A stretch of 64,000 bases of DNA from Sphaerolaimus hirsutus (Eukaryota > Nematoda > Chromadorea > Monhysterida > Sphaerolaimidae). The position numbers and the translations under genes were made by a program. The notes beneath the pieces are model-generated. The model had not been told where the DNA came from, ran no database searches, and saw nothing but the letters and a program-made list of their open reading frames with translations. Position 1 is the first letter of the stretch. Every line of letters begins with the position of its first letter. Below, one piece after another: positions 28,141 through 57,217 of the stretch. The DNA lies in assembly GCA_964036195.1 (NCBI GenBank), contig OZ038459.1:7747206-7811205 (forward strand), written 5' to 3'.

Positions 28141-28802
28141 TCCCATTGAAAAATGTCCAAAAATTTCAGTTTTGATATGCATTTTTGAACATATTTTTCA
28201 AAAATTTTGCGCATTTCCACACCATATGCATGATACCGTATTTCCTAGAAATACCCCCCTTGAATTAACCTCCCTTGAAATACCCCCATGTGTTTTTGAG
28301 CTGAGGAAAAAATACCTCGCCCCCCTCGAAATACCCCTGTCTGGAATATCATCATCACGTACATCATGTATGCAATATACATGATGTATAAATAGAGGCC
28401 AATTTGCGCCGCAGCTACATGCCTGATTTGTGTAGCAATGTACGTTGATATGTCCTTATTTAGTCATGTTTTTCACCAGTTTTGGGTATGTAAAGGCCCA
28501 TTCTTTACTACTATCTTTACGAAAATTTCTGGTGAAATAAGAAACCCCCCTCGAAATTAGGGTTCAAATGGGACCAGTTTTTCGGACCGGGACCGGGACC
28601 ATAAATTTTCTAATGTCGGGACCGGGACCGGGACTGGGACCGGGACTGGGACCGGGACTGGGTGGTCCGGACCGGGACCGGGACTGGCTTTTTTCAAGTG
28701 TCGGGACTGGGACTGGGACCGGGACTGGGTGGTCCGGACCGGGACCGGGACTGGCTTTTTTCAAGTGTCGGGACCGGTGTAATGCGATAATCGACGGCGG
28801 GC

Positions 28803-28837
28803 CACCAAAGTGCCAGACCTATGTCTCTGGGACGGTG
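28803..28837 (+). ncRNA. Stem-loop 1 of the constant-loop family
   Basis: Outer stem CACC/GGTG, inner stem CCAGA/TCTGG (28813-28817, 28826-28830), loop CCTATGTC. Copied in the 3' LTR at 42540-42574. Confidence 0.7.
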
Positions 28838-28990
28838 ACCCAGCGCCAATTAACGCATACAAGCCCTAATTATGGCGCTTTAGCCTCCGGAAATGCCACA
28901 CGGGCCATCTTTAGACCAAAGAGACGTCATTGCGACGTCGCCCTATATGAAACCTAACTTATAGGGAACTTACGGCGCAACGAACGCCAA

Positions 28991-29067
28991 CTATGGTAAT
29001 TGGCGCCAGATCACCAAAGTGCCAGACCTACGCCTCTGGGACGGTGATTAAGCGCTAATTACCATAG
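28991..29067 (+). ncRNA. Stem-loop 2 within a 16-bp outer stem
   Basis: Outer arms CTATGGTAATTGGCGC and GCGCTAATTACCATAG pair at all but one position. Inside them ATCACC/GGTGAT and CCAGA/TCTGG stack beneath an 8-nt loop CCTACGCC (29027-29034). It also exists in the 3' LTR at about 42728-42804. Confidence 0.8.
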
Positions 29068-29634
29068 AACTGTATATCGATGGCGCTATGTCGCCGGCCC
29101 TAATTGACAAAACGGCCTGGTTAGCCGTATTTAGTCGTGAAAAGTCCCGGGTGACGTCATTTGACACCACCGGGAACGGAACCCAACTTTTGTGAAACTT
29201 ACGGCGCTTTCATTAAAAAGAAAAGCAGCGCCGAGTAAAAACTGTGTTTCCCCGAGTGTGGCGGCCGAACGAGCGCCGGCGAACGACTCCGACGGCCGCG
29301 ACAGCGCCGCGCCGCCGCCATTCGACGACCGCCGACCGCCGGAACCCGGGAGAGGGGGGATTTTTGGTGTTTTGGGCGGTTTTTGTGAAAGTGTCGAATC
29401 GGTCATTTCTGGCCGAGTGCCAACTTCCGGAAAATGGCACCAAGTGTATTTTTGAGGGGGTTTAAGTGCTGCCGCCGTGTTTTGGCGACAGTTTATCGCT
29501 CAAAACTTGTAAATTTACCCCTTACCCAGTTCCCCCCGACCGTCCACGACAGCGACCGCCGGAAACGTCCGCGGAGCGACGAACTTCGGCCGCTTAGAGA
29601 GTTTTCGGTGGGAGTGGCCACCGGAAGGGATGGC

Positions 29635-29677
29635 CCCGATAGCTCCTGAAGCCTACGTCCTTCGGAGTAGAGACGGG
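29635..29677 (+). ncRNA. Stem-loop 3 of the constant-loop family
   Basis: Outer CCCG/CGGG, inner CTCC(T)GAAG/CTTCGGAG with one bulged T, loop CCTACGTC (29652-29659). The stem bases differ entirely from stem-loops 1 and 2. Confidence 0.75.
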
Positions 29678-29731
29678 TCACCCCTTCTGGAGGGGTATGT
29701 GCCTTTAGTTAGAAATAGTAAAATAGGGAGC

Positions 29732-29778
29732 GGCCCGATAGCTCCTGAAGTCTACGTCCTTCGGAGTAGAGACGGGCC
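29732..29778 (+). ncRNA. Stem-loop 4 of the constant-loop family
   Basis: Outer GGCCCG/CGGGCC, inner CTCC(T)GAAG/CTTCGGAG, loop TCTACGTC (29751-29758). It lies about 100 bp after stem-loop 3, from which it may be a duplication. Confidence 0.75.
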
Positions 29779-31784
29779 AATCCCAAAGGAAATTGGAAGA
29801 GTGCCAAAAAGGCAGTTTTTGTGTGTAATTTGGCACATATCCCGTAGCCACTGCTGCCACAGGGAGGAGTTTGTGATGTTTTAGGCTGTAGGTTGTAGGA
29901 GTAGGTTTAGGAAGTAGGTGCGCGGTAGGTGCCGCGGTTTGTGATTTATTGAGTATGTATTTGTATTTATTTGCACTTAATTACCCACCTAACCCCCTTA
30001 GTTGTGATAATTGCATGTATTTTGTGATTGTGTTTTGTGTTTTGCACTATTTCTATGTTTCGCATGTATTTCTGTGTTTTGCACTAAATTGCATGTGTTC
30101 GCACTTTTGCACCTTGTGTTCGCTCCACGTCAGTCGAATGGTACGCTGGTTTTGGACGAGCTCACGTTGAGCACACACGGTTATTTTTGTATTTTTGTCC
30201 TTTGGCATTTGTTGCAGCTTTCGAGTAGCTTGTGGATTTGTTCGGCTTGTTTTTAATTGTATCAGGTTAATTTGGAGAGTTTCGCTCAGTTTAGTCACTT
30301 TAAGCTGTTAGTTTGCGCGTTTGCATTCGGTAGGTTACTGTAGGTATTTTGCTTTCTAGTTTGGCACAGTTCCAGGTTTGGTTTTATTAGCTGGCTGAGT
30401 GCCAGAAGAAAGGTGTTCCTGAATGTCAAGTCACCATTCCCCTGTTCCATTAAAAAGTAACCCTTGTGGTACATGGCTCTGTTCAGCTGAGGTCACTTAT
30501 TTCTGGTACATTTTTGAATGCACTTTCGTGATTGGTTGGCTCCGCCCAGCTGCAAACCGGTTTTGGGCATTTCAGACCCATAAAAGAGAGCCCCAATCTT
30601 GTGATTATCATCAGTCTATTCAATCCAATTCTAATTACTAAGTCAGTGATTTACCAGCTGAAATGAGCCTACCCTTGGTTATTCATTCTCTGCTAACTCT
30701 GGCATAGGCCTTCTCTTCCCTCTGCACGGTGACATTTAGGTTCACAGGGGCAGGAGTGGCCACACGGAGCTGCCGGTATAGCTAAGATAGGGTGTTGTAT
30801 GGGGAGAACCCACCATCTGTGATGCTTACTGTACGTCTGGACCTCTGTGGACTTGTTTTAGGCGTAAATTAAGCTGAAGTAGGCTGTACACCTATTGACT
30901 CGCTCTAGGCTTTCGTAAGGGCCCAAACAGTTGTGCTACGTCGTTGTAGAATTACTTTTGATAGTGGTGCTGTGCCAAGCTAGGATTTAAGTACCTGGTC
31001 TTGTGTGGTCTCTTACCAGTGCATCGTACTGCTATCCTCACCTGTCTGGTTTAGCTTATATGACCCTGAGTGTTATTTAGTCATTTTTATGTTAATGTTC
31101 TGATTTGGAAAGTTGAAAGGTAAATTGGAAATATTCAAGTACTTTGGAAACTTTAATTGTAACGTTATCCGAGAAACCCAATTAGTGTAATTCAAGCTTA
31201 CTCTGGTGCAACAATTCTCTACTTAATCTATTGGCTCATTCCAGCTAGTGGATCTAATTATTTCTAATTCTAGTTTGTGAATCGTGATGGAAGTTGCTTT
31301 TATTTGCTTGCATTCGAGTGATGTTCAGTTGTCGGTTTTCGAGGCGTGGGCTAATCTTGTTTCTGTTTCTGAAAGTGCGCCAAGTTCTGAAGGTTTCTGG
31401 GATGTTGATGATTTGGAAACGGGCCCAGTTTTTGATGGTTTTGAACCCGTGTTGGAATTGTTTCAAATTCAGCGAAGGGCCACGTATGCGGACAAGGTTC
31501 AGGGCGCTGGCGATTTTGTTGTTGATTCCGTTTTGCCCAATGGCGAGATAATTAGTGATGCTTCTCAGCAGTGGTTGCTTGATCACTTGATCATGGAGCC
31601 AGCTTTTATTGAACCCGGAATTTGTGGTGTTTCTGAGAAAACCGCTGAAAGGCTGAAGAGAGTTGTGCAGCCTAGAAACCTTTGGTATTTGGTGGGTAAG
31701 AAGGGGAAATTACAGCCGCACGTTATCCGCCGCAAGCTTTTGCAATTTGCGCGACCGGACTTTGTTAGCTGTGGCAACCAAGTA

Positions 31785-31828
31785 GACCGAAAAGTTCCGA
31801 AGCCTACGTCCTTCGGAATAGCTAGGTC
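31785..31828 (+). ncRNA. Stem-loop 5 of the constant-loop family (coding)
   Basis: A perfect 8-bp stem TTCCGAAG/CTTCGGAA around loop CCTACGTC (31803-31810), with outer GACC/GGTC. It lies in the upstream ORF, where the loop is read as P-T-S, a different frame from stem-loops 6-8. Copied at 45522-45565. Confidence 0.8.
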
Positions 31829-32211
31829 GAAAGGCACCAAGCTAGTGAAGTTTGGCAGACAGGATTTAGCGCACGCGCCAAGCGTAGGGCTTGTAGGGCA
31901 GTTGTTGAGTGCCCAGTGGACATCATGTCGCTCGTTGAATGGTCGGAATTGTGCGATTATTTGGTTGGCGTGTTGCCATCGTTTGTCGTTCCATGTGTGC
32001 AAAAGGTAACCAAGTCCCCTGTTAGGTGCTGTAGATTTGGCGTAATTAGGCAGGATGGGCTGCATGAGCGCATCATTGAGAGTTCTGACGAATATGGGCA
32101 TTGCCCAAGGTGCTGTTATTTGTCCCATAATGGTGATGTTGCAAGCCCCGGGGATGTATCGTATTTTATTAGAAGCAAGGTTGCAAGACCCGGGGGGTTA
32201 TATTATTATAT

Positions 32212-32229
32212 TGGAGGTCCCACCTCGGG
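32212..32229 (+). promoter_or_regulatory. Primer-binding site of Gypsy element
   Basis: TGGAGGTCCCACCTCGGG begins one base after the LTR/internal junction. TGG fits the tRNA CCA end; the tRNA is not identified. It lies inside an open reading frame. Confidence 0.65.
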
Positions 32230-32769
32230 TTACGGCACCGTGTTGCACCCCCCTTTCACCCCCCCTCCACACCGCACACATAGCCACCCTCCATGCGTAC
32301 AGGGCGTAGTGTTTCAGCTTAGCCCTATGCTACCATGCACATACTGGAACCACAAATGTTGGCTTTTGCGTAAGCGTTTTGAGCGTCTGAAATGTGTGTC
32401 ACGCGCCTATTATCGTTTGATTTCTTGGCATACTGCCCCATCCGTGCTGCAACAGAGTCAAATTTCCAAATTTGAGAAACTACAATACACCATGCCCTGG
32501 CGGCGATTTTTGATGCGAATTTTGAAATTTCCGAAATCTTTTTCATGCCCCGCGCCAGCCAATTGTCAGTTCAAAACTTTCGAAACGACTGATGTCGAGC
32601 CAGAGCTATGTCAATCATGTGAAAAGTACGTGACCACTGACTACTCTTTTGATTCATTTGATTATCAGTATTTATATTTGTCAGCCGACGATGGTGCATC
32701 ATGGTCCTTTGATGATCTTGAGCAATCAACTGAACTGAGCTCGTCATCATGTGCTTCAATTGATAGCGA

Positions 32770-32808
32770 CTCACTAAAATGCCAGACCTACGTCTCTGGG
32801 ATTGTGGG
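32770..32808 (+). ncRNA. Stem-loop 6 of the constant-loop family (coding)
   Basis: Outer CTCAC/GTGGG (one G-T pair), inner CCAGA/TCTGG, loop CCTACGTC (32787-32794). Read as KCQTYVSG in the upstream ORF. Confidence 0.75.
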
Positions 32809-33014
32809 CCAAGGTCAATTTGAGCACAGTGTTGACTTGGCAGCTAGCCAGCCTAGCACTCTAGATGACTCTACTTGTGACACAGATGTGGCTTTGGAAC
32901 ATGTGTGCTCCACTACCTTGTCCGCAGCCCAATCGTTTCAAACAGTATTTATTGAGGACTCGCTCAATTCTTTCGAAATTATTGACGATTATATGGCCGA
33001 CCCCGCTGCACTGA

Positions 33015-33503
33015 GTGGAGCGCACACGACGCCAGATGCCAATGATAATTACATGGTTCACGCTGCGGATATTAATATGTTGCAGTATAATTCATCCTTG
33101 GGTGTGGTTACTTGCCGCCGCGGCAATTCTAACCAGCAGCTTCTTTGAGCTAGACGGTAGGGAACGCGCGCGCCCTGTCGTCCAATGGGCCAGCACTAGC
33201 CGTCGCGGTATATTGTGTAATGATGTTGGCGATTCTGTGGGTTCTCGGGACCGGATGTCTGACCTAGCCACTCCAGCATATACCTCTGAGCCAGGGATGT
33301 CGTATGTTAACGAATCTCGGGATACAGTGTTAAGACGACCCCACGAGGACTTCCCTCAAGCTACTAGTTCCCCGTGTCTGAGCATTCAATCCCCTAGTAG
33401 ACCCCCTACCACTGTCTGTGACCTAATTACCGCCGTGAAACCACCACCTTCCAACCCTACTAGTAGCCCTCAACTCCAACCTCCCACTGGGTCAGTGAGA
33501 TGA
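33015..33503 (+). CDS. Small open frame between the upstream ORF and gag
   Basis: 162 codons, Pro/Ser-rich toward the end. It overlaps the upstream ORF by 134 nt in another frame and lies in the gag frame, separated from the gag ATG at 33546 only by a TGA at 33501-33503 and 14 sense codons. It could be an N-terminal extension of Gag reached by frameshift or readthrough, or chance. No domain recognised. Confidence 0.3.
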   Translation: MERTRRQMPMIITWFTLRILICCSIIHPWVWLLAAAAILTSSFFELDGRERARPVVQWASTSRRGILCNDVGDSVGSRDRMSDLATPAYTSEPGMSYVNESRDTVLRRPHEDFPQATSSPCLSIQSPSRPPTTVCDLITAVKPPPSNPTSSPQLQPPTGSVR

Positions 33504-33545
33504 TATCGAGGATTACTGACGAATAACCACCCAGAGTTCGATACT

Positions 33546-36500
33546 ATGATCTCCCCCTTGCAACAAGCATGTGAACCTGCTAAATTATGGGACCACCTGA
33601 AACCCTCAGACCAGTGCATTGGGGATGTATTACAACCCTTTGAACAACTTCTGAGCGAACTCGATCCTGAGATAAATAAGTTAGATCAGCTATTGTTCGA
33701 CCTTGCTACTGTAACACCTTCTGACCCATCCCAGCAAACCACCCTGGATAATGTTACTTCGGCCCTGATGACCCTTCGAACGTGGTCACAGGCAATGTTG
33801 CCATTTCATGGGTCCTTGCAAGACTCCATTGACCGTACCCTAAGTGTTCACTTGAAACCTTGGGTTGATTCCCTAGCGGGTGATTTACAATCCCTACTTA
33901 GCAACTTTTGTACTGATGTGAATGCCCGGACTAAGCCCCCCGTTGATATGACTATGCCGGCTCAGAGGCAAGCGAACCAGCAGGTACTGGCAGCGTCAGA
34001 CCCTGGCCCGGCGCGCCCACAGTCACGCGCTTACCCCGTTCAGTGCGCGCTTGCATTTATGCAATCCGTTTTGCTAGTTTCTGCACTATCAGCAAGGGAT
34101 TGGACTACTCTTCGTTCTCAGATTCAGTCGAAATCAACGGCTGGTGTCTTTGGCCTAGAAAATAAGGGTGTATCCCAAACAGTGCGCGCTGCAGCCTTGC
34201 GTAGCCTGACAGAGGCCTGGGTTTACCTCGATGTGCATCGGACCGGATTTAATACGTACATGCCATTGCTTGGCACCTTGCCAGAAACAGCTCGGTATGC
34301 TATGGCGCAATTTCACGGATGCATAGCTGAAGGCATTCGCCTCAACCATGCGTTTGCGGATATATTACCTGAGATTAAGCGCCAAGTTAATGGCCCTGTC
34401 GCTCGTAAGACAAGGAAAGAACTGCTTGCACATCTTGGTAATACCTTGGACTCTGCCCGAGACCTTTTGTGCCGCTTAGAGGATCTGGACTTTGCGCAGT
34501 ACAATGCCCTTTGTGCGATGCATATCGGTCGGGTCTCAGACAGGTGTACCCCTCAGAAATGTCGGTTGGTGTGTCAGAATTTGCTGAACAATATCGGTTT
34601 TGGATTAGACTGGCTACACCAGTTGCGTGGAAAAACTCCTGTTCCGACACCCAAACCGCAACCTTCGCAAGTACTCAAGCCACACCAGAGCGCGCATCAA
34701 CCATCCATGTATACTACTCCGTTGAACCGTAGCATTTCGACCTTACCCCCCGCCTGGAATAATGTCTTAGTAGCTCACCTAATGAGCCCCGACCCTATGC
34801 GATGCATGGCGGCACATCAGTGGCCGCCTGATCCTTCTGTTAAAGTGCAAACCGACCCGCCGCGCATTGTACTGACTGACTTATCTACGCACGCTTGGGT
34901 AGAACCTGTAGGTCCGGAGTTCTCTGTTGGCCCAGTGGCTGAGGTTGACGTCAAAACCACTTGGGTTGGTCGTATTTTGCCTACAGTTGGTATTATGGAC
35001 ACACCCTGGGCCATTATTGATCCGCGAAACACTGATCTCGTGCGCGCTTATTCAAAGTTGATTGCTGCCTATTTCGAGTCTGAATACATTTTCCAACTTG
35101 TGTTTCGCTATGGCTGGTTTCCAGATAGCTTACTTACTGCATTTCAACGCTGTGCCTTCCTTGTGCAAAAGCTTGTTGACACGCTTGACCGTTCTATTAA
35201 GCATGGCGAAACAGTAGGCATAACAGACACCTATCCATTACCCGAACAGTACCACATTAATGGTCGCTTTTTGTATAAGTTGGCTAGTGATGCTCGTCGC
35301 GACTATAAACAAGTTGGGGCTAGCTACACTAAGCTGGCACGACGATATTCGGCGGTGCCTGTGCACACTACCCCGATGTTCCCAATTGACCGAAATAATC
35401 GCTTCGAGCACTCTCGCCGTCGCTTACAGCTGCCTACCGCTCAAAACGCGCACTCACAGATGGTTCGGGTAACGAATAGTGTTAGCTGCGATGCTAACGT
35501 AGATATGATTCAGCCGGATGATGTAGGAACGCGGGACAACCAATACGACTTTCTGTTGTCGCACCAGGGTTACCAGCAGCCTGACTCGGCTGGTGGAGCC
35601 CCTGCAACCGCCGCTGTGCAGGCGCCCCAGAGATTATATCATACGGGACATCAGCACACCGGTAGGCTCTCGGTTCCACCAGCACATCTCAGTTCTTCTG
35701 TAGCACCCACTTCGGCTTTAGATCAACTTAAGTCAGAAATGGACCAAAAATATGCTAATATGCGTGACCAGATGGAGGCGATGAACGCTAACATGCGAGC
35801 CCTATTAGACCAAAGACGTGCCCAATCACGAGCCCAGCCTCAAGTTTTGCAACCGAATGTATCAAATGACCCGCCTAGTACTGCAACTAGCTCGGACGAG
35901 GATTTGGCTAAGCATATTAAGAAGCTTAAAATGCTTGGTTGTCCCATGTTCTCGGGTAAAGCGTCTGTTGATGTCGGCCAGTGGCTAGCACAGTTTACCG
36001 CGAAATGTAGAATCTGCAAAATAGCCTCTGACGAAGAAATGGCTTTGACTCTGGCTGCTGTGTTGGAACATGATGCAGCCACGCTGTGTTATGGCCAACC
36101 ACAGGAAGTCCAGACCTCTTTTATGAAACTGGAGTCAGCTCTTAAAGCTCACTTTGGTCAGGCAAAACATGTGCTAGCTACATGCCGAGCAATTACACTT
36201 ATGAATTGGAAACCGAATGACACGATTGATACTGTGCGACGCCGTTTGATGACCGAATCTGCGCAGTTGAAAGATGTGAATCACGGCAAGCGTGAATTGC
36301 GCATGATTGAGGGATTTTTGCATGCCTTGGGTCAACATAATTCCGAGTTGCGTCAATTAGTTGAATTAAATTCTGCTTCACTCGAGTCTTTCGACAAGCT
36401 GATTCAGCATGCTAAAGTCGCTCAACAGTCTTTGGAAAATCGTAAGCTTGAGCAAGACCGCTCAGCTAAGGACACTGAGTTTAAGCGCATGCGCGATGAA

Positions 36501-38036
36501 CTCTCGCAACTGCGGCAGCAAATGTCTAGTGTACGCATGGGCGATAATCGTCAGCAGTTGGGTGGCGGTATGTTGGCTGGCCAACAGCCAATGTTCCGAC
36601 CACCGATGGATATGCGCCAAAACCCGCGATTTGCCTTTCCCGCGCCACAAGCGCAGCCTAGTGCTCAACCGCCGTTCAATGCACAGCGCATGCCAATTAG
36701 ACCGCAACGAGATATTCCGCCTATGCGTCTACCACCCGCCGTACAAGGTCCGCGTTTTGCTCCGCGTCCAACAGTTGATGTAGGGCCACCTGTAGTAGCT
36801 ATTGACAAGCCCGGTCGACAGCCTCCCAATGCTTACAAGAGCTATTTTTGTGATAAATGTAAAATGGCCGGCCATACCACCGAGGAGTGTGGCCGTCGTG
36901 CAACCGGTCCTACCTCATCTGGCCCTGCACCAGCCCAAACGCCGCGTGAGCCACTTAAGTGTTTTAAGTGCAATAAGCCTGGCCATTTCTCGCGTGAGTG
37001 CCCCGAAAACACGCCTGTGCAGAATGTCAATGAACTGTACGCACAGTATGATATCATACCCGACGATCAAATTGGTTACACTGATTTGCAAAATGACTTA
37101 GTTGAGGGAGTAGCAGACCCTAATGACCTGCAAGGTTATTACAACGAATACCCGGCGGAAACCATGCATCAGTACCAATATGATTACTCGGATATGGCAC
37201 CACCAGAAACAGACGCATTAGCCGAAGAGGAGAATGATGTGCGTGTGAATTTTCTGGGTTCCTGTCCAGAACTCTACAACTATTCTGACCCAACTCCAAT
37301 AAGCTATTTTGACGTTTGTGTTACGCAGTGGGTGGACACGTCTACTACTGAGCCAAAGGGCGCCGCGCCAAAGTGCCAGGCCAACGTCCCTGGGACGGTG
37401 CGCGCGCTCAGTGACTCAGTAGCTGGCAAGAGGCCCACTACAAGTTTTTGTAAAACCTTGACTGGTGTTCCCCAGGTCGATTATGTTTGTGACTCGATCC
37501 CACACCCAAGTATTCCGGAAATTCGCATTCAATCTTGCGAACCTGACCAGACCTCAGCCCTCGCGGTAACCACGCAAAAGTCCCAAGCCTACGTCCCTGG
37601 GATTCGTGATACCGCGGGTACTGATGACCTGGAGCATGTATTATTGGGTAGTCAAAAAACTGCGCAAGTACCAACACAAACATCTACCTGGACACCCTCT
37701 ATTAATATGTTTCGCCCTATCAACCCCGCCACACACACGTCTGTAGTTGCTGCTCTAGATCTCAGTACTTCCGATGCTGGCCGAGAAACCTGTCGTGACC
37801 GTAGGAAATATTATTGGGAGCAACTCTCCCCGGATCTAGGTGTCAAGCGCGTGGAGTACCAATGTAATGCCGCACAAGTTGTAGTAACCGAACCATTGGG
37901 TGCTCGCTTGCAAAGTGGTAAAATGACGCGTCCAAAGCACACTGTGCGTGATTTAATTACACCTAGTATTTACCACCGTGCCGTAATTCAAGGTGTAGGG
38001 CCCTATCTAGTATTAGCCGATACTGGCGCGGAATAA
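33546..38036 (+). CDS. Gypsy Gag and start of protease
   Basis: ATG at 33546. An unusually long N-terminal region of about 700 residues has no recognised domain. A coiled coil follows (LDQLKSEMDQKYANMRDQME, about residue 723), then a retrotransposon-gag capsid region (35890-36400) and a Gln/Pro-rich linker. Two CCHC zinc knuckles, CDKCKMAGHTTEEC (36852) and CFKCNKPGHFSREC (36960), show nucleic-acid binding. After an acidic Tyr-rich segment the frame reaches the protease active site ADTGAE and meets TAA at 38034. The downstream codons continue the protease in the same frame. About 1496 codons is well above a usual Gypsy gag. Confidence 0.9.
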   Translation: MISPLQQACEPAKLWDHLKPSDQCIGDVLQPFEQLLSELDPEINKLDQLLFDLATVTPSDPSQQTTLDNVTSALMTLRTWSQAMLPFHGSLQDSIDRTLSVHLKPWVDSLAGDLQSLLSNFCTDVNARTKPPVDMTMPAQRQANQQVLAASDPGPARPQSRAYPVQCALAFMQSVLLVSALSARDWTTLRSQIQSKSTAGVFGLENKGVSQTVRAAALRSLTEAWVYLDVHRTGFNTYMPLLGTLPETARYAMAQFHGCIAEGIRLNHAFADILPEIKRQVNGPVARKTRKELLAHLGNTLDSARDLLCRLEDLDFAQYNALCAMHIGRVSDRCTPQKCRLVCQNLLNNIGFGLDWLHQLRGKTPVPTPKPQPSQVLKPHQSAHQPSMYTTPLNRSISTLPPAWNNVLVAHLMSPDPMRCMAAHQWPPDPSVKVQTDPPRIVLTDLSTHAWVEPVGPEFSVGPVAEVDVKTTWVGRILPTVGIMDTPWAIIDPRNTDLVRAYSKLIAAYFESEYIFQLVFRYGWFPDSLLTAFQRCAFLVQKLVDTLDRSIKHGETVGITDTYPLPEQYHINGRFLYKLASDARRDYKQVGASYTKLARRYSAVPVHTTPMFPIDRNNRFEHSRRRLQLPTAQNAHSQMVRVTNSVSCDANVDMIQPDDVGTRDNQYDFLLSHQGYQQPDSAGGAPATAAVQAPQRLYHTGHQHTGRLSVPPAHLSSSVAPTSALDQLKSEMDQKYANMRDQMEAMNANMRALLDQRRAQSRAQPQVLQPNVSNDPPSTATSSDEDLAKHIKKLKMLGCPMFSGKASVDVGQWLAQFTAKCRICKIASDEEMALTLAAVLEHDAATLCYGQPQEVQTSFMKLESALKAHFGQAKHVLATCRAITLMNWKPNDTIDTVRRRLMTESAQLKDVNHGKRELRMIEGFLHALGQHNSELRQLVELNSASLESFDKLIQHAKVAQQSLENRKLEQDRSAKDTEFKRMRDELSQLRQQMSSVRMGDNRQQLGGGMLAGQQPMFRPPMDMRQNPRFAFPAPQAQPSAQPPFNAQRMPIRPQRDIPPMRLPPAVQGPRFAPRPTVDVGPPVVAIDKPGRQPPNAYKSYFCDKCKMAGHTTEECGRRATGPTSSGPAPAQTPREPLKCFKCNKPGHFSRECPENTPVQNVNELYAQYDIIPDDQIGYTDLQNDLVEGVADPNDLQGYYNEYPAETMHQYQYDYSDMAPPETDALAEEENDVRVNFLGSCPELYNYSDPTPISYFDVCVTQWVDTSTTEPKGAAPKCQANVPGTVRALSDSVAGKRPTTSFCKTLTGVPQVDYVCDSIPHPSIPEIRIQSCEPDQTSALAVTTQKSQAYVPGIRDTAGTDDLEHVLLGSQKTAQVPTQTSTWTPSINMFRPINPATHTSVVAALDLSTSDAGRETCRDRRKYYWEQLSPDLGVKRVEYQCNAAQVVVTEPLGARLQSGKMTRPKHTVRDLITPSIYHRAVIQGVGPYLVLADTGAE
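37364..37402 (+). ncRNA. Stem-loop 7 of the constant-loop family (coding)
   Basis: Outer CGCGCC/GGTGCG, inner CCAGG/CCTGG, loop CCAACGTC (37381-37388). Compared with stem-loop 6 the inner A-T pair has become G-C on both sides. Confidence 0.75.
37562..37616 (+). ncRNA. Stem-loop 8 of the constant-loop family (coding)
   Basis: Outermost CGCGGTA/TACCGCG, then CACG/CGTG, then TCCCAAG/CCTGGGA with one mismatch, loop CCTACGTC (37588-37595). Read as KSQAYVPG. Confidence 0.75.
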
Positions 38037-39989
38037 AGTGCCATTCCTGTGTCTTTATTGGAACAAATTGAGAGCCTTTCAGGGAAATGTCTAGACCGTC
38101 GAATTTTTCAATTGGAAAAACCCCTTGTTTGTAAAGGCTATACAGGACATAAACATACGTTACTTTACTCGATCCAATTGACAGTCTCGATCGGTACGGA
38201 GACACGACGCATAAACTTCGCAATTTCCTTTGAAGGCACTCAGTGCATTATAGGTATTGGTGATTATGCTAAATTTTGGTTCCTACCTATTTGTCCTGGC
38301 GCTTGTATGACACGACCAGTTATGCATAGCAATAAACGGTATCTCATCCCGGGTGATGAGCCTTGCTTGCTCTATGAAGGGGAAATTCCCTACGTAGACA
38401 CCGGGTTACGTACAGGCGCCATTGCAAAAACAGGTGAAAATATCCCAGAAGCAATTGAACGAGTTCAATCCAGTAATATTTACACTGTAGGATCACTTTT
38501 AGAGCCGTATTTGACCCCAAAAACAGATGTAAATAGGCTTTGTTCCTCGTCACCCGTCCCCTATTTCTCGCCAAGTAAGGGTACTGGTGCTGTTGGGGTT
38601 GTCGCAACGGAAAACTGGGTATGTCCACCGCGCTCCGTGTCTTATGTGCCGGCTGAGTTGGCAGATGCTCCCCAGGAGATACTCACCACGGTTCTTTTCA
38701 GCCCACATGCACACTTTTCCGAAAATTTCGAAAACACTTTGCTACCACTAGAGAACGGGAATGAACTCTTTGTTCCGTTTGCAAATCACTCGGACAAGGA
38801 GATGGTGCTATTTGCCTGCCAGTCTCTTGGCTGGGCCGAAGAGGTGGTGGTGGAACCGACTAACGACTTCCACATGAACGAACTTGCAGTTGAATTCGCC
38901 GATGTGTGGTGGCAAACAGTGCAGATACCCTTGTGTAAGGCTCTCTGTGAAGCCAACTTGGCTTCCACACAGGTAGAACCCCCTGAGGACCCTGTAATCA
39001 CTGCTCAATCACCCCCTGAGACTCGATTGCACCAACTTGGGAAAATTCTGGACGAAGGAGTACTTAGCCACCTCCCCTTGGAAAAGCAACAGGTGTTGCG
39101 TGACTGGCTATTAGAACGCCATCACATCTTTTCACTGTCCGATTTTGACATGGGAGATACAGGCGATATAATTTACCACCCCATCGAAACCGGAAATTCT
39201 CCCCCGATTCAACAGAAAGTCCGTAGATTAGCTATCGGGTTACGTAAGGAAGTTGAACGCCAAGTGCAGCTGTGGCTGAAATTAGGGATAATTGAGCCGT
39301 CAGTGTCTCCTTGGGCATCCCCGATTGTCCCGGTGCGTAAGAAAAATGGCGCGCTGCGATTATGTGTCAATTACCGTCGTGTGAACTTAGTGACCAAGCG
39401 TGATTGTTTTGCATTGCCAAATTGTGCTGATCTGATTGACATGGCTGGACTCGTGCACCCCCAGTATTTTTCATCGCTCGATTTAGCATCTGGGTATCTG
39501 CAGATGCGTATCGACCCCCGGGATATTCCAAAAACTGCATTTACTAGCCATGTCGGTCTGTTTCAGTATAAATTTATGCCGTTCGGCCTAGTTAACGCGC
39601 CAGCCTCATTTAGTCGGCTTATTGCTAATGTACTTGCGGGTTTAGATCCAGACCGTGTGCATTTCTACCTGGACGACGTTTTGGTTTGCGCCGAAACCGA
39701 GGAACATATGTACTCGCTTTTGGATGATGTTTTTGCTCGTTTCGATCGATACACCCTTAAAGTCGGTATTAAGAAATGTGAATTCTTTAAAGAACGCGTT
39801 AACTTTCTGGGTTGTGTCCTAACGAGGGAAGGCATTGAAATGCAACAGTCAAAAATCACCACTATCCAAAATTACCCAGTCCCAGTAACCACTAAGGAAA
39901 TCCGTCGATTCCTGGGCATGTGCTCTTTTTACCGTCGCTGGGTTGAGGGTTTCTCCTTTATTACACGACCGTTGCACTTAAAAATTTAG
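38037..39989 (+). CDS. Gypsy protease remainder and reverse transcriptase
   Basis: Same frame as gag, directly after the TAA at 38034-38036. No ATG is needed if the stop is read through; a GTG at 38049 is not a convincing start. The protease continues SAIPVSLLEQIE. The reverse transcriptase has SLDLASGYLQMRID (39475), FMPFGLVNAPASFSRL and the catalytic FYLDDVLVC (39664). The thumb follows, with FLGMCSFYRRW. The frame ends at TAG (39987) exactly at the RT-RNase H connection, where the protein family continues without a break. The two stops make this copy probably defective. Confidence 0.88.
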   Translation, partial: SAIPVSLLEQIESLSGKCLDRRIFQLEKPLVCKGYTGHKHTLLYSIQLTVSIGTETRRINFAISFEGTQCIIGIGDYAKFWFLPICPGACMTRPVMHSNKRYLIPGDEPCLLYEGEIPYVDTGLRTGAIAKTGENIPEAIERVQSSNIYTVGSLLEPYLTPKTDVNRLCSSSPVPYFSPSKGTGAVGVVATENWVCPPRSVSYVPAELADAPQEILTTVLFSPHAHFSENFENTLLPLENGNELFVPFANHSDKEMVLFACQSLGWAEEVVVEPTNDFHMNELAVEFADVWWQTVQIPLCKALCEANLASTQVEPPEDPVITAQSPPETRLHQLGKILDEGVLSHLPLEKQQVLRDWLLERHHIFSLSDFDMGDTGDIIYHPIETGNSPPIQQKVRRLAIGLRKEVERQVQLWLKLGIIEPSVSPWASPIVPVRKKNGALRLCVNYRRVNLVTKRDCFALPNCADLIDMAGLVHPQYFSSLDLASGYLQMRIDPRDIPKTAFTSHVGLFQYKFMPFGLVNAPASFSRLIANVLAGLDPDRVHFYLDDVLVCAETEEHMYSLLDDVFARFDRYTLKVGIKKCEFFKERVNFLGCVLTREGIEMQQSKITTIQNYPVPVTTKEIRRFLGMCSFYRRWVEGFSFITRPLHLKI

Positions 39990-42338
39990 GGTGCTAAGAC
40001 TACCTGGGATGACGAATGTCAGGCTGCCTTTGAAGAACTTAAGAAACGTTTAGTAGAAGGCCCAATTTTAGCCTACCCTAAAGAGGGTCGCCCATTTATT
40101 TTGCACACGGATGCCTCTCGCAGTGGTTTAGGCGCGGTTTTGAGTCAGATGGACGATGCAGGCCGCCATCGCGTGGTCGCTTATGCTAGTTGCGCGTTAA
40201 AAGGTGCCGAGAAACGTTACAATACCACGGAACTGGAGTGCCTAGCTATTGTCTGGTCCTTGAAATACTGGAAACATTATTTGACACAACAAGAAGTTAT
40301 TATTGTAACGGATCACCGCACGCTTACATGGGCACTGGAAAACCGTTCTGAGAACCCTCGCTTAGACAAGTGGTATGTGTTTCTAATGGCTTACCAACCT
40401 AAGATCATTTTTAAACGCGGTAGTGAGAATAGTGTGGCAGATGCGTTGTCGCGTATTGCCGAGTCGGTTAATTTCCATAAGTGGACTGAGGATCATTTAC
40501 AAGGTAAATTCGACCCCGAAGAGGTACCCGCTGGTATCTGCCCCCTGGCCACTTTCACTGATAAATGGCAAGCGCACCCGTTGAACCAACCTGAGCCCGA
40601 CTTGTCTGAATACTCTGCCGTTGAGATTACGAAAATTTCTGACGAAATGCACTATGTATGGCATCCCCCGCTCGGTGTAGGTCACATTCAAGTACTGGAC
40701 AATATACCTCACCCAGCTAATCAGGATAGAACACCAAAAGCGAACAACCCTTCAATTTTCGAAGCTAAGTCCACCCCCGTCGAAAGATTTAACATGACCG
40801 GTAAGGATGTCGACGTAACCCGCGATGCAGGTCTCGCGATAGACGGTATCGTGGGTTTTACGCTGGAATCCGTTGCTGAGGAAACTCAAAAGTTTTGGCA
40901 ACGAATTATAAAAGGTCAGGAAGCCGACCCCGATACTCAGTCCATTAAGCTGTTTTTGACCACTAGGCAATACACGAAGCACGCGCGCTTCAATACTTGG
41001 TTAGATCGCAACTATACTGGGTTTTGTGTGGCGCATGATGTATTGTGGTTTATGGGAAATACTAGTCGTTGTGCGTGTCTGGTGGTTCCAATAGAAATTA
41101 CTTCAGAGCTTTGTGAAAGATTTCATTCCTGGGGACACCCAGCTGGTCTCAAGTTGTCTATGTTGTTAAGGATTTATTTTTGGTGGTTCACACTGACCAT
41201 GGATGCTCATCGTGCTGTGGATAAATGTCTGGAGTGCGCCACTAGGACAGGACAGGGTCGTAAACGTCTCAACCCGCTCACTCCTATTTCAGTGGTGGCA
41301 GAGCCATTTTTCCATATCCATATGGACGTTCTAAAAATGCCAATGTCGCAAAATGGTTTTCAGTACGTATTGGTCTTGCAAGATGCATTTACAAAATACC
41401 CTTGTGCATATGCTCTCCGGTTAAAAGACGCGGAAACAGTGGCGTACCATTTTATGCAATTTGTTTCAGATCATGGTGTCCCACGAGTACTTGTCACTGA
41501 CAACGGTTCGGAATTTTGCAATGCGATTTTACATGGGTTGACACAATTTTGGGGAACAGACCATCGCAAGACCACTGTGTACCGACCACAAGCGAATGCA
41601 TTAGTAGAGCGTTTTAACCGCACTTTGTTAGACATGTTGGCTAAAATGTGCACTCTGCGCCCTACTGACTGGGATGAGTGGCTTGCCCCTGCACTGTACT
41701 GGTACAGAGCCATACCTCATGCAAGTACTGGTGAATCTCCGCACTTTTTGGCAACAGGTCGCGACATGCCGCTTCCCGGCGACACGTCGTTTTTGGAAAC
41801 GTCGCAACTTGTGTATAATGAACACCCAAAGTACCATGAGCGGATTGTCCAGTATACGCGTGAGGCTTGGAAAATTGCCAAAGAGTTGATCGATTTGGCG
41901 CAAGCACAACAAAAAGCTCAGTATGATAAGAAATGTAAGCCCCTGACTTTTGAAATAGGTCAGCGTGTGTGGTACTTAGCAGAAGGTGTCGTGACTGGTC
42001 CCGCTTATAAACTTGCCCGGCCGTACATCGGTCCTTATCGCATTTTGGAGCTTAAAGGGAAGACAGCCAAAATTAAGCGCATCAACCAATGCGATGCGGC
42101 AGCAATTCGTGTCAACCTGGATAAACTGCTTCCGGTAAAGGACTCTGTAGCTTCAGGTGCGATTTGGACCGGTCGCGCCCTGCGCAAGGTGCGTGAGGTT
42201 CCGTTGGAGAGTGAACTGCCGACACATGATGTCTCTGGTGAGAAAACCGACACTGGTGTGATGCCTGGCGACAAGCCACTGTCAGGTGATGGCATGGTAC
42301 TCAGAAGTGGTAAATATGTGCGTTCTAATTCAAAGTAA
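39990..42338 (+). CDS. Gypsy RNase H and integrase
   Basis: In frame with the RT segment after the TAG. RNase H: HTDASRSGLGAVLSQ (40104), TELECLAIVWSLKYW and a terminal VADALSRI. Integrase: zinc-binding H/H and C-X2-C (CERFHSWGH, CLECATRT, 41119-41250), catalytic Asp in HMDVLKM (41319), second Asp in VTDNGSEF (41497), Glu in NALVERFNRTL (41596). A GPY/F module follows (RPYIGPYRILELKGK, about 42018). No chromodomain and no envelope ORF. The frame closes 128 bp before the 3' LTR. Confidence 0.9.
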   Translation, partial: GAKTTWDDECQAAFEELKKRLVEGPILAYPKEGRPFILHTDASRSGLGAVLSQMDDAGRHRVVAYASCALKGAEKRYNTTELECLAIVWSLKYWKHYLTQQEVIIVTDHRTLTWALENRSENPRLDKWYVFLMAYQPKIIFKRGSENSVADALSRIAESVNFHKWTEDHLQGKFDPEEVPAGICPLATFTDKWQAHPLNQPEPDLSEYSAVEITKISDEMHYVWHPPLGVGHIQVLDNIPHPANQDRTPKANNPSIFEAKSTPVERFNMTGKDVDVTRDAGLAIDGIVGFTLESVAEETQKFWQRIIKGQEADPDTQSIKLFLTTRQYTKHARFNTWLDRNYTGFCVAHDVLWFMGNTSRCACLVVPIEITSELCERFHSWGHPAGLKLSMLLRIYFWWFTLTMDAHRAVDKCLECATRTGQGRKRLNPLTPISVVAEPFFHIHMDVLKMPMSQNGFQYVLVLQDAFTKYPCAYALRLKDAETVAYHFMQFVSDHGVPRVLVTDNGSEFCNAILHGLTQFWGTDHRKTTVYRPQANALVERFNRTLLDMLAKMCTLRPTDWDEWLAPALYWYRAIPHASTGESPHFLATGRDMPLPGDTSFLETSQLVYNEHPKYHERIVQYTREAWKIAKELIDLAQAQQKAQYDKKCKPLTFEIGQRVWYLAEGVVTGPAYKLARPYIGPYRILELKGKTAKIKRINQCDAAAIRVNLDKLLPVKDSVASGAIWTGRALRKVREVPLESELPTHDVSGEKTDTGVMPGDKPLSGDGMVLRSGKYVRSNSK

Positions 42339-42466: not shown

Positions 42467-45400
42467 TGTAATGCCTGTTCGCGCTGGGTCAGCGCTCAAA
42501 AGGTCGGTATAGTATGTAATGCGATAATCGACGGCGGGCCACCAAAGTGCCAGACCTATGTCTCTGGGACGGTGACCCAGCGCCAATTAACGCATACAAG
42601 CCCTAATTATGGCGCTTTAGCCGCCGGAAATGCCACACGGGCCATCTTTACACCAAAGCGACGTCATTGCGACGTCGCCCTATATGAAACCTAACTTATA
42701 GGGAACTTACGGCGCAACGAACGCCAACTATGGTAATTGGCGCCAGATCACCAAAGTGCCAGACCTACGCCTCTGGGACGGTGATTAAGCGCTAATTACC
42801 ATAGAACTGTATATCGATGGCGCTATGTCGCCGGCCCTAATTGGCAAAACGGCCTGGTTAGCCGTATTTAGTCGTGAAAAGTCCCGGGTGACGTCATTTG
42901 ACACCACCGGGAACGGAACCCAACTTTTGTGAAACTTACGGCGCTTTCATTAAAAAGAAAAGCAGCGCCGAGTAAAAACTGTGTTTCCCCGAGTGTGGCG
43001 GCCGAACGAGCGCCGGCGAACGACTCCAACGGCCGCGACAGCGCCGCGCCGCCGCCATTCGATGACCGCCGACCGCCGGAACCCGGGAGAGGGGGGATTT
43101 TTGGTGTTTTGGGTGGTTTTTGTGAAAGTGTCGAATCGGTCATTTCTGGCCGAGTGCCAACTTCCGGAAAATGGCACCAAGTGTATTTTTGAGGGGGTTT
43201 AAGTGCTGCCGCCGTGTTTTGGCGACAGTTTATCGCTCAAAACTTGTAAATTTACCCCTTACCCAGTTCCCCCCGACCGTCCACGACAGCGACCGCCGGA
43301 AACGTCCGCGGAGCGACGAACTTCGGCCGCTTAGAGAGTTTTCGGTGGGAGTGGCCACCGGAAGGGATGGCCCCGATAGCTCCTGAAGCCTACGTCCTTC
43401 GGAGTAGAGACGGGTCACCCCTTCTGGAGGGGTATGTGCCTTAAGTTAGAAATAGTAAAATAGGGAGCGGCCCGATAGCTCCTGAAGTCTACGTCCTTCG
43501 GAGTAGAGACGGGCCAATCCCAAAGGAAATTGGAAGAGTGCCAAAAAGGCAGTTTTTGTGTGTAATTTGGCACATATCCCGTAGCCACTGCTGCCACAGG
43601 GAGGAGTTTGTGATGTTTTAGGCTGTAGGTTGTAGGAGTAGGTTTAGGAAGTAGGTGCGCGGTAGGTGCCGCGGTTTGTGATTTATTGAGTATGTATTTG
43701 TATTTATTTGCACTTAATTACCCACCTAACCCCCTTAGTTGTGATAATTGCATGTATTTTGTGATTGTGTTTTGTGTTTCGCACTATTTCTATGTTTCGC
43801 ATGTATTTCTGTGTTTTGCACTAAATTGCATGTGTTCGCACTTTTGCACCTTGTGTTCGCTCCACGTCAGTCGAATGGTACGCTGGTTTTGGACGAGCTC
43901 ACGTTGAGCACACACGGTTATTTTTGTATTTTTGTCCTTTGGCATTTGTTGCAGCTTTCGAGTAGCTTGTGGATTTGTTCGGCTTGTTTTTAATTGTATC
44001 AGGTTAATTTGGAGAGTTTCGCTCAGTTTAGTCACTTTAAGCTGTTAGTTTGCGCGTTTGCATTCGGTAGGTTACTGTAGGTATTCTGCTTTCTAGTTTG
44101 GCACAGTTCCAGGTTTGGTTTTATTAGCTGGCTGAGTGCCAGAAGAAAGGTGTTCCTGAATGTCAAGTCACCATTCCCCTGTTCCATTAAAAAGTAACCC
44201 TTGTGGTACATGGCTCTGTTCAGCTGAGGTCACTTATTTCTGGTACATTTTTGAATGCACTTTCGTGATTGGTTGGCTCCGCCCAGCTGCAAACCGGTTT
44301 TGGGCATTTCAGACCCATAAAAGAGAGCCCCAATCTTGTGATTATCATCAGTCTATTCAATCCAATTCTAATTACTAAGTCAGTGATTTACCAGCTGAAA
44401 TGAGCCTACCCTTGGTTATTCATTCTCTGCTAACTCTGGCATAGGCCTTCTCTTCCCTCTGCACGGTGACATTTAGGTTCACAGGGGCAGGAGTGGCCAC
44501 ACGGAGCTGCCGGTATAGCTAAGATAGGGTGTTGTATGGGGAGAACCCACCATCTGTGATGCTTACTGTACGTCTGGACCTCTGTGGACTTGTTTTAGGC
44601 GTAGTATAAGCTGAAGTAGGCTGTACACCTATTGACTCGCTCTAGGCTTTCGTAAGGGCCCAAACAGTTGTGCTACGTTGTTGTAGAATTACTTTTGATA
44701 GTGGTGCTGTGCCAAGCTAGGATTTAAGTACCTGGTCTTGTGTGGTCTCTTACCAGTGCATCGTACTGCTATCCTCACCTGTCTGGTTTAGCTTATATGA
44801 CCCTGAGTGTTATTTAGTCATTTTTATGTTAATGTTCTGATTTGGAAAGTTGAAAGGTAAATTGGAAATATTCAAGTACTTTGGAAACTTTAATTGTAAC
44901 GTTATCCGAGAAACCCAATTAGTGTAATTCAAGCTTACTCTGGTGCAACAATTCTCTACTTAATCTATTGGCTCATTCCAGCTAGTGGATCTAATTATTT
45001 CTAATTCTAGTTTGTGAATCGTGATGGAAGTTGCTTTTATTTGCTTGCATTCGAGTGATGTTCAGTTGTCGGTTTTCGAGGCGTGGGCTAATCTTGTTTC
45101 TGTTTCTGAAAGTGCGCCAAGTTCTGAAGGTTTCTGGGATGTTGATGATTTGGAAACGGGCCCAGTTTTTGATGGTTTTGAACCCGTGTCGGAATTGTTT
45201 CAAATTCAGCGAAGGGCCACGTATGCGGACAAGGTTCAGGGCGCTGGCGATTTTGTTGTTGATTCCGTTTTGCCCAATGGCGAGATAATTAGTGATGCTT
45301 CTCAGCAGTGGTTGCTTGATCACTTGATCATGGAGCCAGCTTTTATTGAACCCGGAATTTGTGGTGTTTCTGAGAAAACCGCTGAAAGGCTGAAGACAGT

Positions 45401-45948
45401 TGTGCAGCCTAGAAACCTTTGGTATTTGGTGGGTAAGAAGGGGAAATTACAGCCGCACGTTATCCGCCGCAAGCTTTTGCAATTTGCGCGACCGGACTTT
45501 GTTAGCTGTGGCAACCAAGTAGACCGAAAAGTTCCGAAGCCTACGTCCTTCGGAATAGCTAGGTCAAAAGGCACCAAGCTAGTGAAGTTTGGCAGACAGG
45601 ATTCCCGCGCACGCGCCAAGCGTAGGGCTTGTAGGGCAGTTGTTGAGCGCCCAGTGGACATCATGTCGCTCGTTGAATGGTCGGAATTGTGCGATTATTT
45701 GGTTGGCGTGTTGCCATCGTTTGTCGTTCCATGCGTGCAAAAGGTAACCAAGTCCCCCGTTAGGTGCTGTAGATTTGGCGTAATTATGCAGGATGGGCTG
45801 CATGAGCGCATCATTGAGAGTTCTGACGAATATGGGCATTGCCCAAGGTGCTGTTATTTGTCCCATAATGGTGATGTTGCAAGCCCCGGGGATGTATCGT
45901 ATTTTATTAGAAGCAAGGTTGCAAGACCCGGGGGGTTATATTATTATA
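42467..45948 (+). repeat. 3' LTR of Gypsy element
   Basis: About 3482 bp. It starts with a TGTAATGC-flanked 48-bp segment absent from the 5' LTR and then aligns with 28778-32210 at an offset of 13737-13738. It ends TTATATTATTATA against MITE sequence. It carries copies of hairpins 1-5. Confidence 0.9.
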
Positions 45949-47243: not shown

Positions 47244-47260
47244 TGGCGCAGCGAGCAGGG
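47244..47260 (+). promoter_or_regulatory. Primer-binding site of BEL element
   Basis: TGGCGCAGCGAGCAGGG directly adjoins the LTR CA. The TGG matches a tRNA CCA end. The tRNA is not identified. Confidence 0.7.
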
Positions 47261-57175: not shown

Positions 57176-57217
57176 CGTTGCTGCAACAACGGGGTGCAGC
57201 AACTCTTCCGCCCGGAG

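What the first reader, a model, noticed from the sequence alone, without database searches (positions are those of the whole stretch)
28803..37616. A family of stem-loops with a constant 8-nt loop and covarying stems, spread through one Gypsy element
Eight sites (28803, 29010, 29635, 29732, 31785, 32770, 37364, 37562), plus copies of the first five in the 3' LTR, share the loop CCTACGTC or a close variant. The flanking stems differ in sequence but still pair: CCAGA/TCTGG, CCAGG/CCTGG, TTCCGAAG/CTTCGGAA, CTCC-GAAG/CTTCGGAG, TCCCAAG/CCTGGGA. Most have a second, outer stem that also covaries (ATCACC/GGTGAT, CACG/CGTG, CGCGCC/GGTGCG, GGCCCG/CGGGCC, GACC/GGTC). They occur in non-coding LTR and in coding sequence. 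The loop is read as P-T-S at 31803 and as Y-V in another frame at 32787, 37381 and 37588, so peptide selection cannot explain it. Compensatory change points to a folded RNA (or hairpin DNA) bound by something that reads the loop, for example a packaging, dimerisation or translation signal. Six of the eight loops contain the self-complementary ACGT, which could support loop-loop contact. Alternatively it is a miniature hairpin that multiplies inside the element.
Basis: seen in the sequence. Interest (0 to 1): 0.88.

Follow-up and report, generated by a model that had tools for sequence, protein, structure and literature searches.

The report
Repeated covarying hairpins in a retrotransposon
A large jumping element in what is probably an animal genome carries about twenty kinds of one folded hairpin whose tip is kept nearly the same while its long arms change in matching pairs, which suggests a repeated signal that something reads, although what reads it is not known.

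Summary
All eight sites and five 3'-LTR copies are there. Each caps an imperfect 60-95 nt hairpin whose arms match each other, not those of other sites. The host genome (348 Mb, unnamed, probably animal) holds many relatives; longer ones carry at least seven to ten further hairpins before the 3' LTR and one after pol, some 18-20 site types, all pointing one way. Across 14 sites the covariation score exceeds every shuffle and slide. In gag, synonymous variation falls to 0.03 over one hairpin (0.16 overall) and only in the core of the other. The two isolated core matches that I fetched are fragments of this element; no Rfam family matches the hairpins. I think it is a dispersed cis-acting RNA signal read at loop and A bulge, most likely by Gag for packaging. 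That it acts as RNA is inferred: G-U and A-C mismatches are about equally common, so DNA-level pairing is not excluded. ACGT loop-loop dimerisation is not supported, since T7 often changes to C. A mobile miniature hairpin is unlikely.

The parts
28778..32214 (+). 5' LTR of the Gypsy element (about 3.44 kb)
   Evidence: self-BLAST: 28778-32214 matches 42515-45952 at 99.3% over 3438 positions; 25 differing positions
28782..28858 (+). hairpin h1 (loop 28818-28825 CCTATGTC), at the 5' end of the LTR
   Evidence: fold z -2.70; in the genome 13 of 25 distinct copies have CCTACGTC
28991..29067 (+). hairpin h2 (loop 29027-29034 CCTACGCC); a second version of the arms occurs in relatives and also pairs
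   Evidence: fold z -8.00; reworked version in L007/L009, L074 and L027
29621..29690 (+). hairpin h3, subtype 2 (loop 29652-29659)
   Evidence: fold z -1.73, 11 of 200 shuffles as good; palindrome score at the 0.15% level of the element
29726..29784 (+). hairpin h4, subtype 2 (loop 29751-29758); the weakest site
   Evidence: fold z -2.80; palindrome score at the 1.5% level; outermost arms do not pair
31758..31852 (+). hairpin h5, subtype 2 (loop 31803-31810), inside an LTR-encoded frame
   Evidence: fold z -3.77; stem pair T-A in 4 of 15 copies, the window's among them, C-G in 11
32743..32836 (+). hairpin h6 (loop 32787-32794), between the LTR and gag
   Evidence: fold z -4.41; relatives hold a second copy 183 nt downstream
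37340..37427 (+). hairpin h7 (loop 37381-37388), gag frame after the zinc knuckle
   Evidence: best palindrome of the whole element; fold z -4.93; 40 scored copies of the region in the genome, a capped list
37547..37632 (+). hairpin h8 (loop 37588-37595), gag frame
   Evidence: fold z -3.58; the lowest synonymous variation of 363 windows lies here
42515..45952 (+). 3' LTR with copies of h1-h5 (loops 42555, 42764, 43389, 43488, 45540)
33546..38036 (+). gag frame with zinc knuckle, holding h7 and h8
   Evidence: zf-CCHC E 1.2e-06
38049..39989 (+). pol frame: reverse transcriptase
   Evidence: RVT_1 E 4.2e-25
40101..42338 (+). pol frame: RNase H and integrase; no family hairpin here
   Evidence: RT_RNaseH, rve, Integrase_H2C2; no family hit

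Best explanation
The element's transcript carries about 18-20 kinds of one hairpin (the window's shorter element has eight kinds). A protein or complex reads the apex: the 8-nt loop CCTACGYC, the closing stem, and the unpaired AAA with a G-G mismatch on the 5' side. The long arms only have to pair, so they diverge with matched changes. I think these are repeated cis-acting RNA signals that recruit the element's own Gag for genome packaging and particle assembly, several weak sites adding up. Shown here: the hairpin family, its apex conservation, the covarying arms, nucleotide-level constraint in gag, and its uniform sense orientation in the copies examined.
For: Arm-swap test: outer arms (18-45 nt from the loop) pair with their own partner (8 sites -18.6 vs -9.5 kcal/mol over 56 swaps; 15 sites -19.1 vs -10.9 over 210 swaps, 0 of 20,000 permutations as good). 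Covariation on 14 sites: 50 cells changed on both sides vs 24.6 shuffled (0/500) and at most 21 on slides; score 0.477 vs 0.226 shuffled (0/500) and at most 0.198 on slides. Within sites, 19 of 24 double changes at Watson-Crick pairs give another Watson-Crick pair. Loops: G6 in 471, C8 in 472 and A4 in 470 of 472. Paired columns vary less than unpaired hairpin columns, 0.229 vs 0.522 variants per column. gag: pS 0.008 in the h8 core and 0.027 over all of h8 vs 0.157 overall. Sense strand in 71 of 71 loci that could be oriented. The architecture matches published packaging-signal systems: dispersed stem-loops with a shared loop motif and a 5' bulged A in MS2 (PMC6281560, passages read), and loops with a core-protein motif in HBV (PMC7612645, start of abstract in listing). 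The element encodes a CCHC zinc knuckle.
Against: No binding, expression or structure-probing data exist. The wobble test gives no sign of RNA: new changes at Watson-Crick pairs give G-U 70 times and A-C 75 times, and 22 vs 21 for variants in three or more copies. Mean sense and antisense folding energies differ little (8 sites -39.3 vs -38.6, my mean of the values; 15 sites -37.3 vs -33.9). In one search two of five measures are weaker: 14 pairs with double change vs 11.2 (14/500 shuffles reach it) and 33 further pair types vs 28.9 (26/500). Several of the 14 sites are related by duplication. In one search the own outer arm is the best partner in 8 of 15 rows, and nearer the loop in only 3-4 of 15, since cores are alike. 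Against random centres 5 of 8 sites reach 0.05 for the outer arms; h1, h4 and h5 do not. h7 arms are not depleted in synonymous change (pS 0.143), and another low stretch without a family hairpin lies near 36915. Two of 16 hairpins fold no better than shuffles at the 5% level (h3, a2). The 13 copies of b1 show no clear matched double change in the inner arm. Subtype 2 matches the type-1 model weakly. The number and spread of sites is high for a retroelement packaging signal (recalled).
Confidence: 0.42

Rival explanations
1. The hairpins are cis-acting RNA signals for another step: nuclear export of the long unspliced RNA (as the CTE of type D retroviruses does) or translation control, bound by a host protein.
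For: In longer relatives the densest array lies between the last long frame and the 3' LTR, where the CTE lies in type D retroviruses (recalled). Such elements are long imperfect stem-loops with conserved unpaired parts (recalled). All RNA-level evidence for the best explanation applies equally.
Against: No Rfam match at the hairpins: three sub-threshold matches in 22 kb of the window lie elsewhere, none in two relatives. Sites also lie in gag and throughout the LTR, which export does not require. No binding data.
Confidence: 0.2
2. The pairing matters at the DNA level: the palindromes act as cruciform or single-stranded DNA hairpins, in cDNA or in chromatin, read at the loop.
For: Strand-neutral mismatch tolerance: G-U 70 vs A-C 75 new changes; the excess over swapped arms is all Watson-Crick, with neither G-U nor A-C raised.
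Against: Hairpins face the sense way in 71 of 71 loci that could be oriented. With 15 sites, isolated outer mismatches lean to G-U, 19 vs 8. A mild A-C tolerance in a long RNA stem would give the same counts.
Confidence: 0.13
3. No function in the arms: one core hairpin spread by tandem and dispersed duplication inside the element, and template switching during DNA or cDNA synthesis keeps copying one arm onto the other, making matched changes without selection.
For: Template switching is reported to create hairpins and possibly to maintain them; the authors call its role in maintenance less clear (PMC8794818, passages read). h2 has two blocks of arm sequence that are both paired. Strand neutrality fits. 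Some array arms (a1, a3, a4; a6, a10) look related by eye, so duplication happened.
Against: Arm copying alone should not lower the overall rate of change (inference), yet paired columns vary less than unpaired ones and synonymous change is suppressed over all of h8. The apex is conserved among 14 sites. The reworked h2 block holds G-U pairs, which a direct copy would not give (read by hand).
Confidence: 0.12
4. The hairpins are substrates for small-RNA or double-stranded-RNA enzymes of the host (Dicer-like, ADAR), as decoys or as a silencing source.
For: Length of about 60-95 nt and irregular stems; strand-neutral arms.
Against: In precursors of small RNAs the stem, not the loop, is usually conserved (recalled); here the reverse holds. 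No small-RNA data.
Confidence: 0.06

Closest known systems
Dispersed packaging signals of RNA viruses and HBV (packaging-signal-mediated assembly; PMC6281560 passages, PMC7612645 start of abstract in listing)
   Same: Many stem-loops spread through one genome with a shared loop motif, in MS2 also a 5' bulged A, and sequences that vary around the motif
   Different: Here the carrier is a Gypsy LTR retrotransposon, the stems are far longer, the apex is strongly conserved in sequence, there are clustered arrays, and no protein reader is shown
Retroviral 5' packaging and dimerisation signals; Ty1 kissing loops (PMC5454406, start of abstract in listing; Ty1/Ty3 review PMC4974528, passages read)
   Same: RNA hairpins in LTR elements that package their RNA through Gag
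   Different: Those are mostly confined to the 5' region (recalled); here sites run from the LTR to the 3' end, and the self-complementary loop is not conserved
CTE and RTE export elements of type D retroviruses and IAP elements (recalled)
   Same: Long imperfect hairpin near the 3' LTR with conserved unpaired parts
   Different: Single element there, many here; no sequence or Rfam match at the hairpins
gypsy insulator: clustered Su(Hw) sites in Drosophila gypsy (recalled)
   Same: Repeated short sites inside one Gypsy element
   Different: Those are linear DNA sites without covarying arms
MITE or foldback elements (recalled)
   Same: Short palindromic units in several copies
   Different: Most arms not shared between sites, one orientation only, not seen outside the element in what was fetched

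Membership tests
Dispersed packaging signals | multiple stem-loops across one genome sharing a recognition motif, with variable stems | tested here: met
Dispersed packaging signals | bound by the capsid or Gag protein | not testable with these tools
   no binding data
Dispersed packaging signals | needed for efficient packaging or assembly | not testable with these tools
   no functional data
Kissing-loop dimerisation signal | conserved self-complementary loop | tested here: not met
   loop position 7 is T in 370 and C in 102 of 472 loops; diversity 0.20 there
CTE/RTE export element | recognisable known export element by covariance model | tested here: not met
   no such Rfam match at E up to 5 in 22 kb of the window or up to 1 in L018 and L022
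CTE/RTE export element | position between the last gene and the 3' LTR | tested here: inconclusive
   true of the array in relatives, not of the window's sites
Miniature mobile hairpin (MITE/foldback) | copies homologous to their ends | tested here: not met
   likeness between the window's sites ends within 18 nt of the loop; some array sites look related further out
Miniature mobile hairpin (MITE/foldback) | copies outside the carrier and in both orientations | tested here: not met
Ty3/Gypsy LTR retrotransposon | LTRs, zinc-knuckle gag, RT-RNase H-integrase order | tested here: met
Any Rfam family | a match at the hairpins | tested here: not met
   matches lie at 26032, 30254 and 43991, below their gathering scores
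Coding-sequence motif (peptide selection) | synonymous change freer than amino-acid change | tested here: not met
   h8 pS 0.027, pN 0.040 over 33 codons; h7 over 33 codons pS 0.143, pN 0.042, so this test is clear only for h8

The most novel reading that the evidence does not exclude
A Gypsy retrotransposon marks its own genomic RNA with about twenty dispersed hairpins that share one apex and have free, co-evolving long arms, and uses them together as a distributed packaging and assembly code, a scheme known from RNA viruses and HBV and, in the searches run here, not met in an LTR retrotransposon.
Probability: 0.33. Interest if true: 0.86.

Novelty: new variant of a known kind. Interest (0 to 1): 0.7.

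Why it matters
How LTR retrotransposons choose their own RNA is, to my knowledge, best studied in yeast. Here one element offers some 18-20 natural variants of a hairpin, most of them in many copies, with the apex nearly fixed and the arms free, so the recognised part can be read directly from the alignment and tested with short RNAs. If the pairing proves to act in DNA instead, a retroelement with about twenty selected DNA hairpins would be more surprising still.

Tried and rejected
Peptide selection: rejected for h8 and the h7 core. ACGT kissing loops: rejected. Miniature mobile hairpin: unlikely. Known RNA family: none at the hairpins. Exact cores in viral contigs and GTDB contigs and the U3 region in phages: no match. 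Relatives of the gag region with h7/h8 in the protein database: none at E 0.001. RT relatives are 32-45% identical over 15-54% of the query; a viral-contig scan with the RT found none, so I had no DNA of other species' elements. The wobble test was meant to decide RNA against DNA and did not. A scan of local folding energy over the whole window put h2 (both copies) and h4 alone of the family among its 24 listed extremes, because other palindromic repeats dominate; the palindrome score centred on the loop was more telling. b1, found late and not used in the model, has an unchanged stem core in 13 of 13 copies (one loop CCTACATC) and no clear matched double change in the inner arm. Dropped rows: three of 18 clusters (28 of 278 hits) were chance hairpins without the core and were left out. 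One search kept 189 of 273 copies over 11 clusters and skipped a10 (12 copies). One search kept 358 of 374. One search used a stricter cut whose numbers were not printed. In one search 31 rows became 29 distinct ones. In one search the row 33546-34100 is void, because most loci do not reach it, and the diversity after h6 may be spoiled by missing ends. Flank diversity is inflated by indels, since those comparisons are ungapped.
Full report
What is there. The window holds a Ty3/Gypsy element with LTRs at 28778-32214 and 42515-45952, 99.3% identical, and frames for a zinc-knuckle gag, reverse transcriptase, RNase H and integrase. They fall into two subtypes. Five (h1, h2, h6, h7, h8) share, with changes, a core like AAAGTGCCAGACCTACGTCTCTGGGAC; three (h3, h4, h5) share one like GCTCCTGAAGCCTACGTCCTTCGGAGTA. 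BLAST likeness between sites ends within 18 nt of the loop. The hairpins span 59 to 95 nt.

More than chance. Scored as Watson-Crick palindromes, the eight sites lie at the 0.006% to 1.5% level of all centres in the element, and 11 of its 16 best palindromes are family sites, LTR copies included. With the loop allowed 2 mismatches and arm energy of -30 or lower, 14 places remain on both strands of 64 kb, 13 of them the family; 60 permuted loops give 1.75 on average and at most 6. A looser count is less clean: 15 places on the + strand, 12 of them family, against a mean of 3.3 for 300 8-mers drawn from the window, one of which gave 16. Against dinucleotide shuffles 14 of 16 hairpins had at most 2 of 200 shuffles as good; h3 had 11 and a2 had 24.

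The arms are matched pairs. Swapping arms between sites shows that each 5' arm fits its own 3' arm. For the part 18-45 nt from the loop the mean energy is -18.6 with the own arm and -9.5 (sd 3.2) with 56 swapped arms, the own arm being best in 7 of 8 rows; over 9-45 nt it is best in 8 of 8. Against 1000 random centres, 5 of 8 sites reach 0.05 for 18-45 nt (h1, h4 and h5 do not) and 7 of 8 for 9-45 nt (h5 0.053).

The genome. The window's assembly is searchable: 348 Mb, unnamed, probably an animal (inferred from the BEL/Pao neighbour and from RT relatives). The 20-mer CCAGACCTACGTCTCTGGGA occurs 172 times and its reversed control 0 times; a degenerate 26-mer core occurs 392 times, control 0, the first 100 places being listed. 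Pieces of related copies show that the same sites recur at about 83-91% identity and that h6 has a second copy downstream. Longer elements carry an array of 7-10 further hairpins in the pieces fetched before the 3' LTR (9 loci), with more site types in L061. One more (b1) lies, by distance, downstream of pol; its region has 40 scored matches, a capped list. The window's element has 13.7 kb from LTR to LTR and lacks the array and b1; one relative has about 26.3 kb by the positions, if both LTRs belong to one element. Clustering 377 distinct hairpins gives 17 clusters and three singletons, two clusters holding two neighbouring sites each; 18-20 site types is my count. The two isolated core hits that I fetched, L079 and L080, hold other sites of the same element. 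Hairpins lie on one strand in 81 of 81 sources (80 loci and the window). Of 92 loci, 71 have a match of at least 150 bases to the window's element and all 71 have the hairpins in its sense direction; the other 21 could not be oriented this way. Several loci overlap or are copies of one another, so these are not independent.

Covariation. Fourteen sites align without gaps over 52 columns with invariant A13 A14 C18 C19 A20, loop C C - - C G - C, and T33 G34 G35 G36. For the structure with an AAA bulge and a G-G mismatch, which I drew from this alignment, 78.6% of 252 cells pair against 63.1% after shuffling (0/500). 50 cells are changed on both sides against 24.6 (0/500) and at most 21 on slides; the score is 0.477 against 0.226 (0/500) and at most 0.198. 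Two weaker measures: 14 pairs with a double change against 11.2 (14/500) and 33 further pair types against 28.9 (26/500). With 15 sites the arm-swap difference is -19.1 against -10.9, with 0 of 20,000 permutations as good; the own arm is best in 8 of 15 rows. Some sites are related by duplication (h6 and its copy, a4 and a5; by eye also a1, a3, a4 and a6, a10), so they are not fully independent. Within sites, 19 of 24 double changes at Watson-Crick pairs give another Watson-Crick pair. At h2 relatives show two different blocks of arm sequence, both paired. The model, built from 14 sites of which two are the window's own, finds the type-1 sites of the window at E of 2.2e-11 or better and subtype 2 weakly (E 0.0075, 0.088 and 7.5); the best non-family hit has E 0.16.

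Constraint. In 29 distinct copies of the gag region, synonymous variation is 0.157 overall, 0.008 in the h8 core, 0.027 over all of h8 and 0.068 in the h7 core, but 0.143 over all of h7. Amino-acid variation is 0.026-0.042 in the hairpins, 0.030 between them and 0.015-0.018 up- and downstream. The lowest 12-codon windows of 363 lie on h8; another low stretch, at 36915, has no family hairpin. Nucleotide-level constraint is clear at h8 and partial at h7. In 11 LTR and array clusters diversity is near zero within 10 nt of the loop and rises outward. Over 472 loops (loops with up to 3 changes were accepted) position 8 is C in all, 6 is G in 471, 4 is A in 470, 2 is C in 464, 1 and 5 are C in 459, 3 is T in 446, and 7 is T in 370 and C in 102. 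Paired columns carry 0.229 variants per column, unpaired hairpin columns 0.522; transitions exceed transversions 2.74-fold in paired and 1.27-fold in unpaired columns. If arms merely copied each other, the total rate of change should not fall, so I read this as selection (inference).

RNA or DNA. A folded RNA should tolerate G-U better than A-C. With eight sites the counts were 16 and 19; with 15 sites 44 and 30 overall, and 19 and 8 for isolated outer mismatches; in fixed register 16 and 11 against a swapped baseline of 20.9 and 13.7. New changes gave 70 and 75, and those in three or more copies 22 and 21. I see no reliable preference. For RNA speak the sense orientation and a mean sense energy of -37.3 against -33.9 for 15 sites (-39.3 against -38.6 for the window's eight, my mean). 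The question stays open.

How it may work. The nearly fixed parts are the loop, the closing pairs, the AAA bulge and the G-G mismatch; the rest must pair but may have any sequence. That is what a protein site on a hairpin looks like, and many such sites in one RNA are what packaging-signal-mediated assembly uses: in MS2 the motif is a loop plus a 5' bulged A, with other stem-loops sharing parts of it (PMC6281560, passages), and in HBV loops with a core-protein motif (PMC7612645, start of abstract in listing). The zinc-knuckle Gag of this element is the natural candidate reader. Export or translation roles, a DNA-level role, and arm copying without function remain as rivals with the weights given.

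Novelty. No Rfam family matches the hairpins. Searches of open papers listed none whose title or abstract start describes such a family in an LTR retrotransposon; lists were capped and subscription papers are not covered. I rate it a new variant of a known kind, because dispersed hairpins with a shared loop are known elsewhere.

Noticed in passing
window 45981-58478: A BEL/Pao element (LTRs 99.4% identical) sits about 28 bases after the Gypsy element and has a 2908-codon frame with a match to a Monjiviricetes fusion glycoprotein (Pfam E 1.7e-14) after pol.
   Followed up: no
L059 minus strand 2162-8983: A long second frame after pol in a relative has a NADAR domain near its end (E 3.2e-13), to my knowledge an unusual cargo for a Gypsy element; the rest has no Pfam match.
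   Followed up: partly
window 31284-32009 and 31916-33148: The LTR and leader hold frames that behave as coding in relatives (pN/pS 0.35 with 4 stops over 14 rows; 0.52 with no stop in 16 rows), so this LTR seems to encode protein.
   Followed up: partly
window 28583-28796 and 58939-59052: Arrays of GGGACC/GGGACT repeats directly before the 5' LTR, with a related stretch after the BEL element.
   Followed up: no
window 26030-26232: An inverted repeat of 79-nt arms, 80% complementary, with a sub-threshold match to the MIR8007 precursor model; probably a MITE.
   Followed up: no
window 35633 (gag): A strong palindrome with loop ATTATATC, not of the family by sequence; unexplained.
   Followed up: no
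window 36915-36960 (gag): Low synonymous variation (0.018) without a family hairpin; perhaps the end of the zinc-knuckle region or another nucleic-acid signal.
   Followed up: no
loops of many sites: Loop position 7 is T or C in several different sites (h2, h8, h3, a4/a5, a9), as if it toggles independently or is exchanged between sites.
   Followed up: partly
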